Notes under the pieces: model-generated
Seen by the model: the letters and a program-made list of their open reading frames with translations, nothing else
Told to the model about the DNA's origin: nothing
The model's database searches: none
Assembly: GCA_003246895.1 (NCBI GenBank)
Contig: QKCL01000017.1
Location: forward strand, 1-37,411
Origin: Spirochaetota bacterium
GTDB lineage: Bacteria > Spirochaetota > UBA4802 > UBA5550
Reading direction: 5' to 3'
Length of the DNA: 37,411 nucleotides
Program-made: the position numbers and the translations under genes
Shown here: in pieces, positions 30,748 through 37,324 of the stretch
How positions within the stretch are numbered: position 1 is the stretch's first letter
How the letters are laid out: each line of letters starts with the position of its first letter

Positions 30748-33447
30748 CTATGCGTATTTCTCTATTTTTTCAACAGTGAAATTATACTTTTCATCATCAA
30801 TGTTAAGTACAACCTCTTCACCTGTTTTCTTTCCAATCATTGCCTTGGCAATAGGAGACCGGTATGACAGGATCTTCTGCTCAAAGTCCGCATCCCACGG
30901 CCCAAGTATTGTATAGGAGCTGATTTCCCCTGTCTCTTTGCTTTTAAGCACTACACGGGTTCCTACATTAACAGATTCAGTGCTGATTTCATTGAGTTTA
31001 AGAACATCTGCTCTCTTCATCTCATCCTCGACTCTGGAAATTGCGAGCTTCAGAATAGCCTGTTTCTCCATGAGGGCATTATACTCAACATTCTCCCTTA
31101 TATCCCCTGACGCTTCCGCAACAGATGAAAGTTCCCTGCTCAGGTTAACCATGTCAAACTTGACCATTCTTTCATACTCAGACTTTCTCTTTTCATAACC
31201 TTCAGGAGAAACAATAAGCTTTTCAGCATCCATTACCCAGTCCTCTGATGTATCCTCATGAGTTGTCTGAAAATTCTCGAATTTCTCATTGGCAATCTCG
31301 TTGAATTTCTCAAGCTGCCATTCTTCCACGAATGGAATATTCTCAAAGATATCGATAAGTTTTCCTACAAGAGTCCTATCGAAGGAATTAACAATTTTCC
31401 TGATGGCAGCAGCCTCATCACTGAAAAGAATATCTATCATCATGTTTTTTAAACGGTTTCCATCGATCTCGATTTTCTTTAACTCATTCATGAGCCTGAA
31501 GAAAGTCAGAACAAACTGTTCTTCAGAATAATCAAGCCAGTTGTAGTTCCATGTACCAGAGAATGTATTCTTTGCAATCCAGACAAATATATCCGGGAAT
31601 TCCTTGGCGCCAAGAGTAGCCCTTCCGATGAACCTGTTAATCGTATTGTATTCAGAAGATCTTATAAGTATGTTTACAATATACTTATGAATTCTAAGCG
31701 GTGTCTCAAAAAGCAGTTCAAAGAGCACAAGCGGCCAGTCTTCCCTGTTTTCAACAATGAGATTAACAAAATCCTTTTTATAATCATAGGAAGTAATCTT
31801 AACCGAGAACAGAGGCAGTTCATCACTGTCCTTAAGAAAAGATATGACCTTGTTCTTATGCTGGTCAATTTTCAGTTTGGCAGGGTCAATGTATTTCGCA
31901 AGGTCAGTCAGTATAAAATACGACAGTATCTGCCTTGTCTGTGAATCTCCTTTCATCTGTTCTGTGAAGTAATCGGCAAGATAACCTGCAACTTCCCTGC
32001 CTTCCTCAACATCAATATTATTGATAAACTCAATGGAAATATCCAGCCTTTCACTGAAGGACTCCGTTGCCATGAACTTTCCAAGAAGTTCATCAGAGAA
32101 TGTTACAGGTTTGTCTCTCATGAAAATAAGATTTTTCTTTTTATCCGATACCCCGAAGAGTGGATCTTTTTTTATCATGGTTCTGGCCTTGCTCCACCAC
32201 TTGGTCCAGTTTTTATCTTCAACAAATTCAGGAATCAGTTCAGTCTTAATATCATTAAGGTTGATTTCACCTTTGTATGATTTTATCAGATGTTCAAAGA
32301 AGGCCATGAAGTCAGTATTAAACATTTCCTTAACACCTTCGGGATCTTCAAACTTTATTACATAAAGGTGATCCTTCTGGACCGGTTTCAGTGACTGAAG
32401 GGCCATCTTGATGGACATTCTGTGATCAGGCTTATCCCTGAAATTTATGACAATACCTTCACTGTCAATTTCACTTATCTTTCCAAGCCCCCATGAATTA
32501 TGAAAGGCATAGTTGCCCATATCAAAAACAATATTCTTTTCAAAATCCTCGATGGCAAACCTTGCCTGAACCTTGAAATTATTCAGGTTGGATAGTTTCA
32601 TAAACTGTTCAAACTGGGTATGGTCCCCATACTTCACACCATAGAGTTTAATCAGTTCTCTCCTTGAATGTAGATCTTCAGGTCTGTAAAGCAGTACTTT
32701 CTTTAACAGTTCAATTGACTGATCAGGATTATCTTCATCCCTGTATTTATGCAGGAGAATTTTAAGAAGATCAGCTGTGAGTTCAAACTGTTTGGCATCC
32801 ACAAGCATACGTTCAATTCTTTCAAAGAACTGAATGTCTGTCCATGAAACAGAGACAAGTTTCTGCCAGAGAGGTGCTATCTCGTCAAACTCCCTGCTCT
32901 TTATGAAACCTTCAATGGAAAGTTTCATATACTGAATACTCTTGTCCGGATCCTCATTTATTATGGCAAATGCCAGCTTCTTGGCAACATCAGCGTCAAA
33001 ACGTTCAATTTTAAGAAGATCTTCCCATACAGGAATAGCCTCCTTGTTTTTTCCTAACCTTTCGAGGCTGTTTCCCAGTGAACGCAGGGCAAAACCGCTT
33101 TCTCCATATTCAAGAATTTTCTCTGAAAGAACCTCAACGATGGCCCATTTATGACTTTCATTAAATGTCTCTATGAGCTTCCTTAAATATTTCTTATCAT
33201 CAATTTTGTCGAATTCATAACCCAGAAGCCCAACAATATACGCAGCAATAATTGAAGCAGGATACTCTTCAAGGTGGGCCTTGCAGATTTCAATTGCCTC
33301 ATCGGCAACACCATTGGTGATGATTGAATTAAATATATCATCAAGTATCTTGAACTTTGATATACCTACATCCTTCGGCTCAATACGCCCCCATGTTTCT
33401 TCTTTGAATAAGGAAGAAATCTTTTCAATTATTTTGTTATTAGACAT
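30748..33447 (-). CDS. greA: Spirochaetal long-form transcription elongation factor GreA
   Basis: GreA rescues backtracked RNA polymerase by stimulating transcript cleavage. Here (899 aa) the GreA part is only the last ~160 residues: the coiled-coil with SGDIRENVEYNALMEKQ, which carries the acidic tip Asp and Glu that act in the polymerase channel, and the FKBP-like end (VGTRVVLKSKETGEIS ... SPIAKAMIGKKTGEEVVL). The first ~740 residues are a long, helical TPR/HEAT-like region. Spirochaetes such as Treponema and Borrelia have a similar ~900-residue GreA; the usual bacterial protein is ~158 aa. The N-terminal part is presumably an interaction scaffold of unknown role. Flanked by strong hairpins on both sides. 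Confidence 0.92.
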   Translation of the reverse strand: MSNNKIIEKISSLFKEETWGRIEPKDVGISKFKILDDIFNSIITNGVADEAIEICKAHLEEYPASIIAAYIVGLLGYEFDKIDDKKYLRKLIETFNESHKWAIVEVLSEKILEYGESGFALRSLGNSLERLGKNKEAIPVWEDLLKIERFDADVAKKLAFAIINEDPDKSIQYMKLSIEGFIKSREFDEIAPLWQKLVSVSWTDIQFFERIERMLVDAKQFELTADLLKILLHKYRDEDNPDQSIELLKKVLLYRPEDLHSRRELIKLYGVKYGDHTQFEQFMKLSNLNNFKVQARFAIEDFEKNIVFDMGNYAFHNSWGLGKISEIDSEGIVINFRDKPDHRMSIKMALQSLKPVQKDHLYVIKFEDPEGVKEMFNTDFMAFFEHLIKSYKGEINLNDIKTELIPEFVEDKNWTKWWSKARTMIKKDPLFGVSDKKKNLIFMRDKPVTFSDELLGKFMATESFSERLDISIEFINNIDVEEGREVAGYLADYFTEQMKGDSQTRQILSYFILTDLAKYIDPAKLKIDQHKNKVISFLKDSDELPLFSVKITSYDYKKDFVNLIVENREDWPLVLFELLFETPLRIHKYIVNILIRSSEYNTINRFIGRATLGAKEFPDIFVWIAKNTFSGTWNYNWLDYSEEQFVLTFFRLMNELKKIEIDGNRLKNMMIDILFSDEAAAIRKIVNSFDRTLVGKLIDIFENIPFVEEWQLEKFNEIANEKFENFQTTHEDTSEDWVMDAEKLIVSPEGYEKRKSEYERMVKFDMVNLSRELSSVAEASGDIRENVEYNALMEKQAILKLAISRVEDEMKRADVLKLNEISTESVNVGTRVVLKSKETGEISSYTILGPWDADFEQKILSYRSPIAKAMIGKKTGEEVVLNIDDEKYNFTVEKIEKYA

Positions 33448-33586: not shown

Positions 33587-34519
33587 TTACTTATTTGTAT
33601 TATTATTGGTGCTCTTTCCTTTATCTCCGCCGTCAAATTGTGTATGTAGATCCTGTCCATCAAATGACACTTCATATGTATCAGTGAGAACCTTTATCTG
33701 GTCAAAGAAAACATATACATCACTGGCTTTTCTTCTGCTTGTTGCTGAATGAATACCACCAACATTTGTAACTTCCCTGACAACCATTCTTACAAGTTTT
33801 GCCGTTCTAGTAACCGGATATGTATTGGTTGCCTGAGGCACGTTATTTGGAATATTAAACGTCAGCGGCCTCCAGCCTACAAAGTCAATGGTTTGCTTGT
33901 CCAGGATATGAACATCTCCTTTATAATCCTTAACCCAGAGTTCAAGTGTATAGGGGTGCCCTCTTCCATGAACCCACAGGGAAATCGCCTTTGCCCTTCC
34001 CGGTAGCTGAATCCCCCTCTCCTGAACATCTGTTCTTAAAACCTGGTCATAGGTCATTACAGGTGTTCTTTTTTCCCAGTCAACTTCCTTTGGAGGCTGA
34101 ATGGAAACTGAGTTCTTACCAGGATATCTGAATCTGAACTTGATACCAAGAATTTTGTCCTTGGTTTTCCCAAGTCCAGTTACACTCATCTGCTCAATCT
34201 TCATATCCCTTGAACTGCCGCCGAGATACTTCATTTCAAGAGTCATTACCGGATTCTTGCTCTTCAGTGTCTCCGAATCACTGGCAGTTTTATACTGTTT
34301 GGGCGAACTTGTAACAAGCCACCCGTCATCTTCAGAGTTGTTCGCTATTTTTGAATTTTCAAAGTCCTCAACAACAATAGCCCTTGTTTCGCTTCCTGTA
34401 ACGTCGGAAGGAACATTTGTCACTATCTTTGAATCAGCATTTTTGACTCCAAAGTTAATAACAAAGACAAATGTTGCAAAAAGGGTCAATACAAGCATTT
34501 TATTAAAATACATTTTCAT
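33587..34519 (-). CDS. flaA1: Flagellar filament outer layer (sheath) protein FlaA, 310 aa
   Basis: FlaA proteins coat the flagellin core of spirochaetal periplasmic flagella and influence stiffness and helix shape. The N-terminus is a signal peptide (NKMLVLTLFATFVFVINFG), as expected for periplasmic export. FlaA-like segments follow: ETRAIVVEDFENSKIA, the strand-rich centre KAISLWVHGRGHPYTLELWVKDYKGDVH, WRPLTFNIPNNVPQ and SDVYVFFDQIKVLTDTYEVSFDGQDL. The C-terminus ends in a Gly/Lys/Asn-rich tail. GGAGG lies 7 nt before the ATG. It is second in a two-gene flaA operon (32-nt gap), and its mature sequence is clearly related to the first gene. Assignment as FlaA1 follows the leptospiral pair and is less sure than the family. 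Confidence 0.88.
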   Translation of the reverse strand: MKMYFNKMLVLTLFATFVFVINFGVKNADSKIVTNVPSDVTGSETRAIVVEDFENSKIANNSEDDGWLVTSSPKQYKTASDSETLKSKNPVMTLEMKYLGGSSRDMKIEQMSVTGLGKTKDKILGIKFRFRYPGKNSVSIQPPKEVDWEKRTPVMTYDQVLRTDVQERGIQLPGRAKAISLWVHGRGHPYTLELWVKDYKGDVHILDKQTIDFVGWRPLTFNIPNNVPQATNTYPVTRTAKLVRMVVREVTNVGGIHSATSRRKASDVYVFFDQIKVLTDTYEVSFDGQDLHTQFDGGDKGKSTNNNTNK

Positions 34520-34551: not shown

Positions 34552-35328
34552 TTACCAGTTATCCTTGATTCTCTCATCACCGGTAAATTCAGTCAGATCT
34601 GTTACGACTCTAAACTGGTCCATGTAGAAGTAAAAAGGGCCCGGTGCTTCAAATTTATCACTTTCAACGAAGAATGATACAAAATGAAGATTTTTATCCA
34701 TTATTGCATAGTTTGAAGACTGTGGCAGCCATCCTGGAACTATCACGGACATTTCTCTCCAGCCCCAGAAATCGAGTCTTCCAATTTTCAGCTTATGAAT
34801 TTTTCCTTTATAATCGCGGAGTTTGACATAAAGAGTATGCCTGAACTTTCTTCCGAGTACCCAGACTCTGATCTCCTTTGCCTTTCCCCTTATTATATAC
34901 TCATTTGGCGGGAAAACTTCTACCCTGTCAAAACCTCTGTCCATAAAATGGGTTTTAACACCAAGAATAAACTTGTTATCATGCTGTATACCGTTTTCAT
35001 CTGCTTCTGTCTTGTCGGCAAACTCCTTGCCTGACTCATTCTTTTCATTGATCGGCTGACCGTTTACCATTGGCCTTGGTTTTCCCGGATATTTTCTGAT
35101 TTTTGTATCGCCTAAAGGACAGGTTGCCATGGCTCTCCAGTCTTCACAATCCTCAAAGTCATTTAACCAGTCAACAACCAGACCATCAAGTTTCTTTTTC
35201 TCACCATTCGTTGCCTGATTGCTACCGGTTTTATCCTGAGCGAGCAGGTTTGAAGCATCATTGCCTACCAGGAGAACAAGTGTTCCAATGATAAATGACA
35301 ATGCAGCCATTTTAAACTTCCTGTTCAT
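34552..35328 (-). CDS. flaA2: Flagellar filament outer layer (sheath) protein FlaA, 258 aa
   Basis: Second FlaA-family protein of the window and first gene of the operon. It begins MNRKFKMAALSFIIGTLVLLV, a signal peptide. The mature part has the FlaA pattern: WLNDFEDCEDWRA, then KAKEIRVWVLGRKFRHTLYVKLRDYKGKIH, WGWREMSVIVPGWLPQ and FYFYMDQFRVVTDLTEF. These align by eye with the same segments of the downstream gene (WVHGRGHPYTLELWVKDYKGDVH; FFDQIKVLTD), so the two are paralogues. AAGGAGT lies 7 nt before ATG 35328. A sigma-28-like promoter and the TTGATTAATCAA palindrome lie upstream. Naming FlaA2 rests on size and order as in leptospires. Confidence 0.88.
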   Translation of the reverse strand: MNRKFKMAALSFIIGTLVLLVGNDASNLLAQDKTGSNQATNGEKKKLDGLVVDWLNDFEDCEDWRAMATCPLGDTKIRKYPGKPRPMVNGQPINEKNESGKEFADKTEADENGIQHDNKFILGVKTHFMDRGFDRVEVFPPNEYIIRGKAKEIRVWVLGRKFRHTLYVKLRDYKGKIHKLKIGRLDFWGWREMSVIVPGWLPQSSNYAIMDKNLHFVSFFVESDKFEAPGPFYFYMDQFRVVTDLTEFTGDERIKDNW

Positions 35329-35431: not shown

Positions 35432-35666
35432 ATAAATTATACTGATAAAACCCTAAAACATCTCATATAAATTAAAATATAATAATTGTCTTTGTCAAGG
35501 AAAATAATAAACACGCATATTCTTAATAAATTTTATTTTTTTATTTATAAAGTATAATGAACAAAAAATCACAGAACCCTGATTATACTGCAGAGCCTAA
35601 AAAAGGTATTGCCATTTTTTCGGCGAAATTAACTAATAGTAAAAAAATGAATCCGGGAAGAATAAT

Positions 35667-36185
35667 TTGAAAAGAAAAAACAGAGCCGATCAACCTATTC
35701 TTTTTAAGATAATAATGTTTTTTTCAGGAATAATTCTTGGCCTGCTTATTATCGGCATAACAATACAGGGGCTTTCCGTAAAGACCGATTCTATGCTTCC
35801 ATCCATAAAAAATGGAGACTTTGTCATCATAAATAAACTCAATGTTCCGGCAAAGGGTGAGATTGCAGCAATCAAAAGCCCCATAGAAGAAGACAAAGTA
35901 ATATTAAGCAGAATAGTAGCATCTGAATTTGACACAGTGGAAATAAAGAATAAGAATATTTTCGTAAACGGTAAAAAATCAGATCCCCCTTCAGGACTGA
36001 AAAAATCAGAAAAGATGCTTCCCATGAAATTTTCATACAGAGACAACATGCCTCCGGTTAAACTCGGGGCAAAGGAATTCTTTGCAGTTTCGGACAACTT
36101 CGACAGGTCCTATGACAGCAGAACCTTCGGAAAGATCAGCGAAAAAATGATCCTTGGAAAAATAATCTATATTCACAGGCGTTAA
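35667..36185 (+). CDS. Signal peptidase I-like protein with altered catalytic dyad
   Basis: Signal peptidase I cleaves export signals at the membrane with a Ser/Lys dyad. Seen (172 aa, TTG start, GGGAAG upstream): one transmembrane helix (~12-34), the serine box TDSMLPSIKNGD (Ser42), an LSRIVASEFDTVEIKN box, and the C-terminal box VSDNFDRSYDSRTFG. The second box normally reads hhKRhhGhPGDTV; here the Lys is Ser81 and PGD is replaced (Arg82 is kept). The general base therefore seems missing, as opposed to the Lys-to-His change in the SipW/endoplasmic reticulum type. It may be inactive, process different substrates or use another base. At the left it faces flaA divergently; the next gene starts 38 nt downstream, so the two may be co-transcribed. 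Confidence 0.82.
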   Translation: MKRKNRADQPILFKIIMFFSGIILGLLIIGITIQGLSVKTDSMLPSIKNGDFVIINKLNVPAKGEIAAIKSPIEEDKVILSRIVASEFDTVEIKNKNIFVNGKKSDPPSGLKKSEKMLPMKFSYRDNMPPVKLGAKEFFAVSDNFDRSYDSRTFGKISEKMILGKIIYIHRR

Positions 36186-36223
36186 TAAAAAATTCACATA
36201 CCTTCACAAGGGGCATACCGCAT

Positions 36224-37324
36224 ATGTATACACTAAGCACAGAAAAACTCACAAAAACTTTTGTAGAACTGGCTCAAATACCTTCACCATCATGGAAAGA
36301 GGAAAAGGTTCTCAAATATATGATAAAGAGGCTAAAGAAAAACGGAGGGGATATCACTGTTTATCCCTGCGGCATATCCTCAAACCTGCTGGTAAGATAT
36401 GAAGGTACCACAAATCAGCCATCAATACTTTTTTCTGCTCACATGGACACAGTCGGCCCATGCGATAAAATAACCCCTGTAGTTACAAAAACAAAGATTA
36501 CATCAGACGGGAATTCTGTACTCGGGGCAGACGACAAATCTGCGCTGACAATGTTCATAGAAGCCATGGACTACATAAAAGAAAACAGAATCAAACACGG
36601 CCCCATTGAATTTGTAATTACATGTGCCGAGGAACTGGGACTAAAGGGTATGAAGGGATTCGACACATCAGTCGTTAATTCAAAATACGCCTTTGTTTTT
36701 GACAGCGGCGGAGACATAGGAAAAATTGTACATAAGGCTCCATTTCACCTTGACATGAAAATATCTATCAAGGGTATTGCTTCACATGCGGGAATAGCTC
36801 CAGAAATGGGCATTAACGCCATAAGGGTTCTGTCAAAAATTATTGCCGAAATGCCCAACGGCCGCATAGATGAAGAAACCACAACAAACGTCGGCATAAT
36901 TGAAGGGGGAAGAGCAGCGAATATAGTTGCCGAGGATGCCAGCTGTCTCCTCGAAGTAAGATCCATCGACAAGTCAAAAATGATTAAAATTGAAAAACAG
37001 ATTAATGATATTGTAAAAAAAATCTGCTCTCAGGAAGGAGCCAGATTCAGAATAGAAAAATCTCTTGAATACTGCGGATTTTCAATCCCCGAGTCCGCGC
37101 AGATTTCAAAACTAGCAGTAAAGGCAATGGAAAGAATAGGAGTCAAGCCGTCATTTGTAGCTCTAGGTGGAGGCAGTGATACAAACATTCTCAACCGCGG
37201 TAAAATCAAGGCCATGAACCTATCCTGCGGAATGGAAAAAATACACAGTACCGGTGAATATATCAAAATCAGCGAACTTAAAAAAGGCACCGAACTTGTT
37301 CTTTCTCTTATTGAATCAGTCTAG
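36224..37324 (+). CDS. M20-family metallopeptidase, peptidase T-like
   Basis: A zinc aminopeptidase/deacylase of the M20 (PepT-like) family, cytoplasmic (no signal peptide). In 366 aa: metal and catalytic motifs SAHMDTVGP (His-x-Asp), LGADDKSALT (bridging Asp), CAEELGLKG (Glu base and ligand), FVFDSGG (Asp) and LGGGSDTNI near the end; the dimerisation lid domain (~HKAPFHLDMKISIKGIASHAG onward) lies between. This matches the two-zinc active site of the family. Substrate (tripeptides or another amide) is not determinable by eye. Start ATG has AAGGGG ~9 nt upstream. The gene is complete; the window ends 87 nt after it. Confidence 0.92.
   Translation: MYTLSTEKLTKTFVELAQIPSPSWKEEKVLKYMIKRLKKNGGDITVYPCGISSNLLVRYEGTTNQPSILFSAHMDTVGPCDKITPVVTKTKITSDGNSVLGADDKSALTMFIEAMDYIKENRIKHGPIEFVITCAEELGLKGMKGFDTSVVNSKYAFVFDSGGDIGKIVHKAPFHLDMKISIKGIASHAGIAPEMGINAIRVLSKIIAEMPNGRIDEETTTNVGIIEGGRAANIVAEDASCLLEVRSIDKSKMIKIEKQINDIVKKICSQEGARFRIEKSLEYCGFSIPESAQISKLAVKAMERIGVKPSFVALGGGSDTNILNRGKIKAMNLSCGMEKIHSTGEYIKISELKKGTELVLSLIESV

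What the first reader, a model, noticed from the sequence alone, without database searches (positions are those of the whole stretch)
35667..36185. Signal peptidase I homologue with Ser in place of the catalytic Lys
The protein keeps the serine box (Ser42), the membrane anchor and the SDN..DSRTFG box. In the middle box, where the family has KR...PGD, it reads LSRIVASEFD, so the general base is Ser81. Known exceptions use His instead of Lys. A Ser/Ser arrangement would be unusual and could mean a pseudo-peptidase or a new dyad. It sits next to genes for exported flagellar sheath proteins.
Basis: partly seen in the sequence, partly recalled or inferred. Interest (0 to 1): 0.6.

Follow-up and report, generated by a model that had tools for sequence, protein, structure and literature searches.

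The report
Catalytically dead signal-peptidase-like membrane protein
A small spirochaete membrane protein has the fold of the enzyme that trims exported proteins but has lost part of its cutting machinery; its relatives across the phylum lost the same parts many times over, so it most likely works by binding rather than cutting, while a normal enzyme elsewhere in the genome does the trimming.

Summary
ORF 35667-36185 (+, TTG start, 172 aa) belongs to the S26 signal peptidase family (PF10502, TIGR02227), with Ser42 kept and Ser81 (AGC, 35907-35909) exactly where Lys belongs, with no gap. A "Ser/Ser dyad" is not supported. In the seven-member clade around the window protein the position reads S,S,S,S,L,L,G, and Ser42 becomes Asn in one sister. 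No periplasmic Lys or His is conserved as a substitute, and Lys77 is a K/R position also in members that keep the catalytic Lys. A separate long LepB accompanies it; all 42 long LepB sequences read in the order have Ser/Lys, including this genome's own. The short protein is a distinct paralogue found widely in the phylum: 66 of 83 sequences lack the Ser/Lys pair, with at least six changes at each position within the order alone. The residues beside the dyad, the box-E Asp/Ser/Arg and the hydrophobic cleft stay conserved, and dN/dS is about 0.04-0.25. This is a maintained pseudo-peptidase, not a decaying gene or a new dyad. Its closest functional parallel is Streptococcus pyogenes SipA. Its client or partner is unknown. 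The flaA neighbours are conserved only within the host family.

The parts
35667..36185 (+). S26 signal-peptidase-like gene, 172 aa, TTG start (TTG at the same place in five of the six nearest relatives)
35694..35762 (+). single membrane anchor, residues 10-32 (helix in the AlphaFold2 model)
35790..35792 (+). Ser42, nucleophile position (TCT)
35907..35909 (+). Ser81 (AGC) at the catalytic Lys position
36090..36131 (+). box E, residues 142-155 SDNFDRSYDSRTFG; D143, D150, R152 and G155 invariant in the order's small paralogues
34552..35328 (-). flaA2 (flagellar filament outer layer protein), divergent neighbour
33587..34519 (-). flaA1
30748..33447 (-). GreA C-terminal fusion protein (PRK14720 type), part of the conserved neighbourhood
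36224..37324 (+). PepT-like M20 peptidase, downstream on the same strand

Best explanation
The gene encodes a pseudo-signal-peptidase: a single-pass membrane protein with a periplasmic S26 (SPase I) fold that has lost the Ser-Lys catalytic pair and no longer cleaves signal peptides. It is the host's copy of a short paralogue, separate from the housekeeping LepB, that is widespread in spirochaetes. In this paralogue the catalytic positions drift while the fold and the hydrophobic substrate cleft are maintained. Shown here: orthology, loss of the Lys, non-conservation of any replacement, repeated loss in relatives, purifying selection, and an intact LepB in the same genome. Inferred: the protein is inactive, and it acts by binding, either an exported precursor or envelope protein (as a SipA-like assembly or export factor) or LepB or the translocon as an accessory subunit. 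FlaA is not demonstrated as the client.
For: S26 family by sequence and fold: the AlphaFold2 model matches S. aureus SpsB, E. coli LepB and S. pyogenes SipA, with 4n31 SipA giving TM 0.78 over the target at 2.8 A. Dyad table: order-wide small paralogue Ser/Lys in 17 of 42 rows against 42 of 42 long LepBs. Phylum sample: 66 of 83 small paralogues lack Ser/Lys; 59 lack Lys, 43 lack Ser, 36 lack both. Tree built with the dyad columns masked: at least 8 changes at each position over all small rows, at least 6 within the order; a single loss of Lys in the order rejected at p-AU 0.033. Window clade (support 100/100): base S,S,S,S,L,L,G. Entropy rank of positions 42 and 81 is 74 and 93 of 160, while M43, R82, D143, D150, R152 and G155 are invariant in the order. 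Positions lining the cleft (38, 43, 47, 79, 80; assignment from the E. coli and SipA literature by alignment) stay hydrophobic in 95-100% of dyad-lacking members. dN/dS about 0.04 for the closest Ser/Ser pair, 0.12-0.25 for other dyad-lacking pairs.
Against: No assay exists, and residual activity cannot be excluded from sequence. Ser42 is kept in six of the seven nearest relatives, more than drift alone might leave. Seventeen order members keep Ser/Lys and may be active, so the family as a whole is not dead. The binding partner is unknown. In SipA itself the cleft mutant V99R still supported pilus assembly (PMC4049620), so cleft retention does not prove peptide binding.
Confidence: 0.82

Rival explanations
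1. A new Ser42/Ser81 catalytic dyad, with Ser81 acting in place of the Lys general base.
For: Both serines are present, and Ser/Ser occurs in four rows (window, L006, L007, L008).
Against: Within the same clade the base position is Leu (L009, L011) or Gly (L010), and Ser42 becomes Asn in L010. Elsewhere Ser at the base position occurs with Leu, Val, Asn or Lys at the nucleophile (L043, L045, L044, L040, L051). A Ser hydroxyl alone is a poor general base (general chemistry).
Confidence: 0.03
2. An active peptidase that uses another Lys or His as the base (for example Lys77).
For: Lys77 is close in sequence. In SipA, Lys83, two residues before the lost base, lies near the nucleophile position (PMC4049620).
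Against: No Lys or His of the periplasmic part is invariant in the seven-row clade; position 77 is K,K,R,R,N,K,R and is K/R in members that keep the catalytic Lys. The SipA-like i-2 position is Ile79 here. The alignment has no gap.
Confidence: 0.05
3. A dedicated non-catalytic factor for FlaA flagellar sheath proteins, analogous to SipA for pilins (a specific form of the best explanation).
For: flaA2-flaA1 lie divergently beside the gene, within about 2 kb, in all 19 members of the host family (one with a gene in between). FlaA is exported.
Against: None of the order members outside that family has flaA within the 1.5-2 kb read. FlaA is nearly universal in these genomes, so co-occurrence is uninformative, and G140 has the paralogue but no FlaA hit. 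The gene is not in the flaA transcription unit.
Confidence: 0.12
4. A decaying pseudogene.
For: Catalytic residues are lost.
Against: Full-length open frame kept across families; dN/dS well below 1 (0.04-0.25) in dyad-lacking pairs; box E and fold residues invariant.
Confidence: 0.02

Closest known systems
Streptococcus pyogenes SipA (LepA), PDB 4N31/4K8W
   Same: S26 SPase I fold, membrane anchored, Ser-Lys dyad replaced (Asp48/Gly85), cleft retained; works without cleavage (PMC4049620). Found by both sequence profile (E 3e-8) and fold (TM 0.78 over the target).
   Different: SipA sits in a sortase pilus operon of Gram-positive bacteria and keeps a nearby Lys83; here there is no sortase locus, the host is a spirochaete, and Ser42 is kept.
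Staphylococcus aureus SpsA
   Same: Catalytically inactive SPase I paralogue accompanying an active one (SpsB) in the same genome (PMC12445088).
   Different: Lacks both conserved catalytic residues and is reported dispensable; not compared here at sequence level.
Canonical bacterial LepB / SPase I (S26A), e.g. L001 in this genome
   Same: Same fold, serine box, box E Asp-Ser-Arg.
   Different: Long LepB of the order is about 356-425 aa with Ser/Lys in all 42 sequences; the present protein is 172 aa, lacks Lys, has KTDSM where LepB has PTGSM, and the box-E Gly is Ser.
SPases with His as base (ER/archaeal type, SipW)
   Same: Lys replaced in the same column.
   Different: His is a functional base there; three S/H enzymes exist in the same order as a separate branch (L140-L142).

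Membership tests
S26 (PF10502) fold family | profile match above curated cut-off and SPase fold | tested here: met
   92.1 bits against 22.9; Foldseek to SpsB 7e-9 and SipA 6e-8
Active SPase I (LepB, S26A) | catalytic Ser in the xxSM box | tested here: met
   Ser42, but lost in 43 of 83 family members
Active SPase I (LepB, S26A) | catalytic Lys (or His) general base | tested here: not met
   Ser81, no gap, no conserved substitute
Active SPase I (LepB, S26A) | box E GDN...S.DSR | tested here: inconclusive
   DN, Ser148, DSR present; Gly replaced by Ser142
Active SPase I (LepB, S26A) | cleavage of signal peptides | not testable with these tools
   needs an assay
SipA-type pseudo-SPase | SPase fold without an intact Ser-Lys dyad | tested here: met
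SipA-type pseudo-SPase | located in a sortase/pilin operon | tested here: not met
   neighbours are flaA2/flaA1, greA-like and pepT-like
SipA-type pseudo-SPase | required for assembly of a surface polymer without cleavage | not testable with these tools
   no genetic data

The most novel reading that the evidence does not exclude
Spirochaetes share a widespread non-catalytic SPase-fold membrane protein, evolved from an SPase and freed from catalysis many times in parallel, that serves as an accessory subunit or client-specific factor for export or assembly of periplasmic envelope proteins (possibly the flagellar sheath in this family): a counterpart of SipA outside the Gram-positive bacteria.
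Probability: 0.25. Interest if true: 0.65.

Novelty: new member of a known kind. Interest (0 to 1): 0.42.

Why it matters
Profile-based annotation calls these proteins 'signal peptidase I': the window protein scores about twice the equivalog cut-off, and all 14 diverse members scanned match the model, although most of the family lack the catalytic pair. That matters for counting LepBs, for judging SPase inhibitor targets in spirochaetes, and for reading knock-outs. The family also gives many independent natural losses of a Ser-Lys dyad on a conserved scaffold, which makes the question 'what does an SPase fold do without catalysis' testable outside SipA.

Tried and rejected
Ser/Ser dyad: rejected by variation in sister lineages. 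Displaced Lys (Lys77 or any other periplasmic Lys/His): rejected by alignment. Sequencing error at codon 81: rejected because three other genomes share Ser. Pseudogene: rejected by dN/dS and retained fold residues. FlaA-specific role by synteny: supported only in one family, so kept as a rival. FlaA presence/absence comparison was uninformative because FlaA is nearly universal. The first alignment (A1) was too diverse for the search for related loci; a closer set worked. Literature searches found no report on a spirochaete pseudo-SPase, which covers open-access papers only. The AlphaFold2 model gives no coordinates to me, and residues 112-124 and 147-152 are below pLDDT 50, so distances around Ser42 were not measured.

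Full report
Observation. The ORF at 35667-36185 (+) encodes 172 aa from a TTG start and is an S26 family protein (PF10502 5e-26; TIGR02227 91.4 bits, cut-off 47). Ser42 (TCT) occupies the nucleophile position and Ser81 (AGC, 35907-35909) the catalytic Lys position. No column is gapped around it in the window protein. The register is fixed by 42 canonical long LepBs of the same order, by the invariant Arg82 next to it, and by S. aureus SpsB.

Genome context. The host genome has one other clear S26 protein, a 376-aa LepB with SSM and KRCIALPGD (L001). Every one of 46 genomes of the order has an S26 match, and 41 have a strong match to the short paralogue; of the five without one, G026 is 96% complete and the other four are 66-76% complete. 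All 42 long LepB sequences read have Ser/Lys.

The paralogue. In the order the short protein has Ser/Lys in 17 of 42 rows (the count includes one row, L044, from another family). The rest read S/S, S/R, S/L, S/G, A/R, L/R, T/K, A/K, T/G, N/G, N/S, D/V, L/S, L/G, L/T, I/G or V/S. A phylum sample gives 83 short paralogues, of which 66 lack Ser/Lys. On a tree with the two catalytic columns masked, the short paralogues separate from canonical S26 proteins (95/95) and show at least eight changes in Lys status and eight in Ser status; within the order at least six each. A single loss of Lys in the order is rejected at p-AU 0.033, a modest value for a group chosen after seeing the data. A larger quick tree keeps the same split (SH-aLRT 97). 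Long branches of dyad-lacking proteins could attract each other, so the deep unity of the phylum-wide clade is less certain than the order-level result. Named relatives are all metagenome-assembled spirochaetes, e.g. HGW-Spirochaetae-5, UBA5763, UBA5550, ADurb.Bin218.

Why not a Ser/Ser dyad. The seven-row clade around the window protein (100/100) reads S,S,S,S,L,L,G at the base and S x6, N x1 at the nucleophile. No Lys or His in the periplasmic part is invariant in it. Lys77 is K,K,R,R,N,K,R and is also K/R in most members with the true Lys. Positions 42 and 81 rank 74 and 93 of 160 in variability although the neighbouring M43 and R82 never change in the order. The equivalents of E. coli Gly272 (Ser142 here) and, in many relatives, Ser278 (position 148) are altered too. 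Position 40, beside the nucleophile, is Asp in most of the family where LepB has Thr, so even some Ser/Lys members may be poor enzymes; that last point is inference.

Maintained, not decaying. The frame is full length in families f1-f7. dN/dS (NG86) is 0.010/0.248 for the Ser/Ser pair L007/L008 and 0.12-0.25 for other dyad-lacking pairs; Ser/Lys pairs give 0.13-0.25 and canonical LepB about 0.03-0.15. Cleft-lining positions stay hydrophobic in 95-100% of dyad-lacking members.

Fold. The AlphaFold2 model (mean pLDDT 75.8, pTM 0.67) has one N-terminal helix and an SPase-like beta domain. Best PDB matches are SpsB, SipA and E. coli SPase.

Neighbourhood. In all 19 members of the host family flaA2-flaA1 lie divergently beside the gene, once with another gene in between. 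Downstream comes an NDP-sugar pyrophosphorylase/phosphomannomutase-like fusion in most relatives, then the PepT-like gene; the fusion is absent here and not found in the genome assembly. In other families of the order the neighbours differ (aminotransferase, K+ channel, NUDIX/GuaA, HEAT-repeat-like genes, named by eye from sequence) and flaA is not within the 1.5-2 kb read.

Working model. Inferred: the protein holds a substrate-like segment or a partner without cutting. SipA is the tested precedent: inactive, same fold, essential for pilus polymerisation; but mutating its residual active-site residues or its cleft had minimal effect (PMC4049620), so the mode of action there is also open. S. 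aureus SpsA is a further inactive paralogue beside an active enzyme (PMC12445088).

Limits. No coordinates of the model were available for distance measurements. No biochemical data exist.

Noticed in passing
L047, L054, L172, L175, L178, L183-L186, L188, L189, L192, L194, L195, L203: In another branch of the paralogue family Cys replaces the catalytic Lys and a second Cys occupies window position 140 (E. coli Met270 by box-E alignment): 15 of 15 with both, 0 of 88 other non-long-LepB rows with either. A disulfide across the dead active site is plausible but untested.
   Followed up: partly
   Followed up: partly
window 36185-36224: An ~830-aa NDP-sugar pyrophosphorylase/phosphomannomutase-like fusion lies between the S26-like and PepT-like genes in most relatives but is missing here, and no good match exists in the genome assembly.
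   Followed up: partly
L140, L141, L142: Separate Ser/His type SPases occur in family f4 of the same order.
   Followed up: no
L135: A 193-aa LepB-like duplicate in G018 has Ala at the nucleophile with Lys kept, a separate loss inside the canonical LepB branch.
   Followed up: no
window 35557-35670: A 37-codon ORF (ATG) ends overlapping the TTG start of the S26-like gene by four bases; no similar ORF was looked for systematically in relatives.
   Followed up: no
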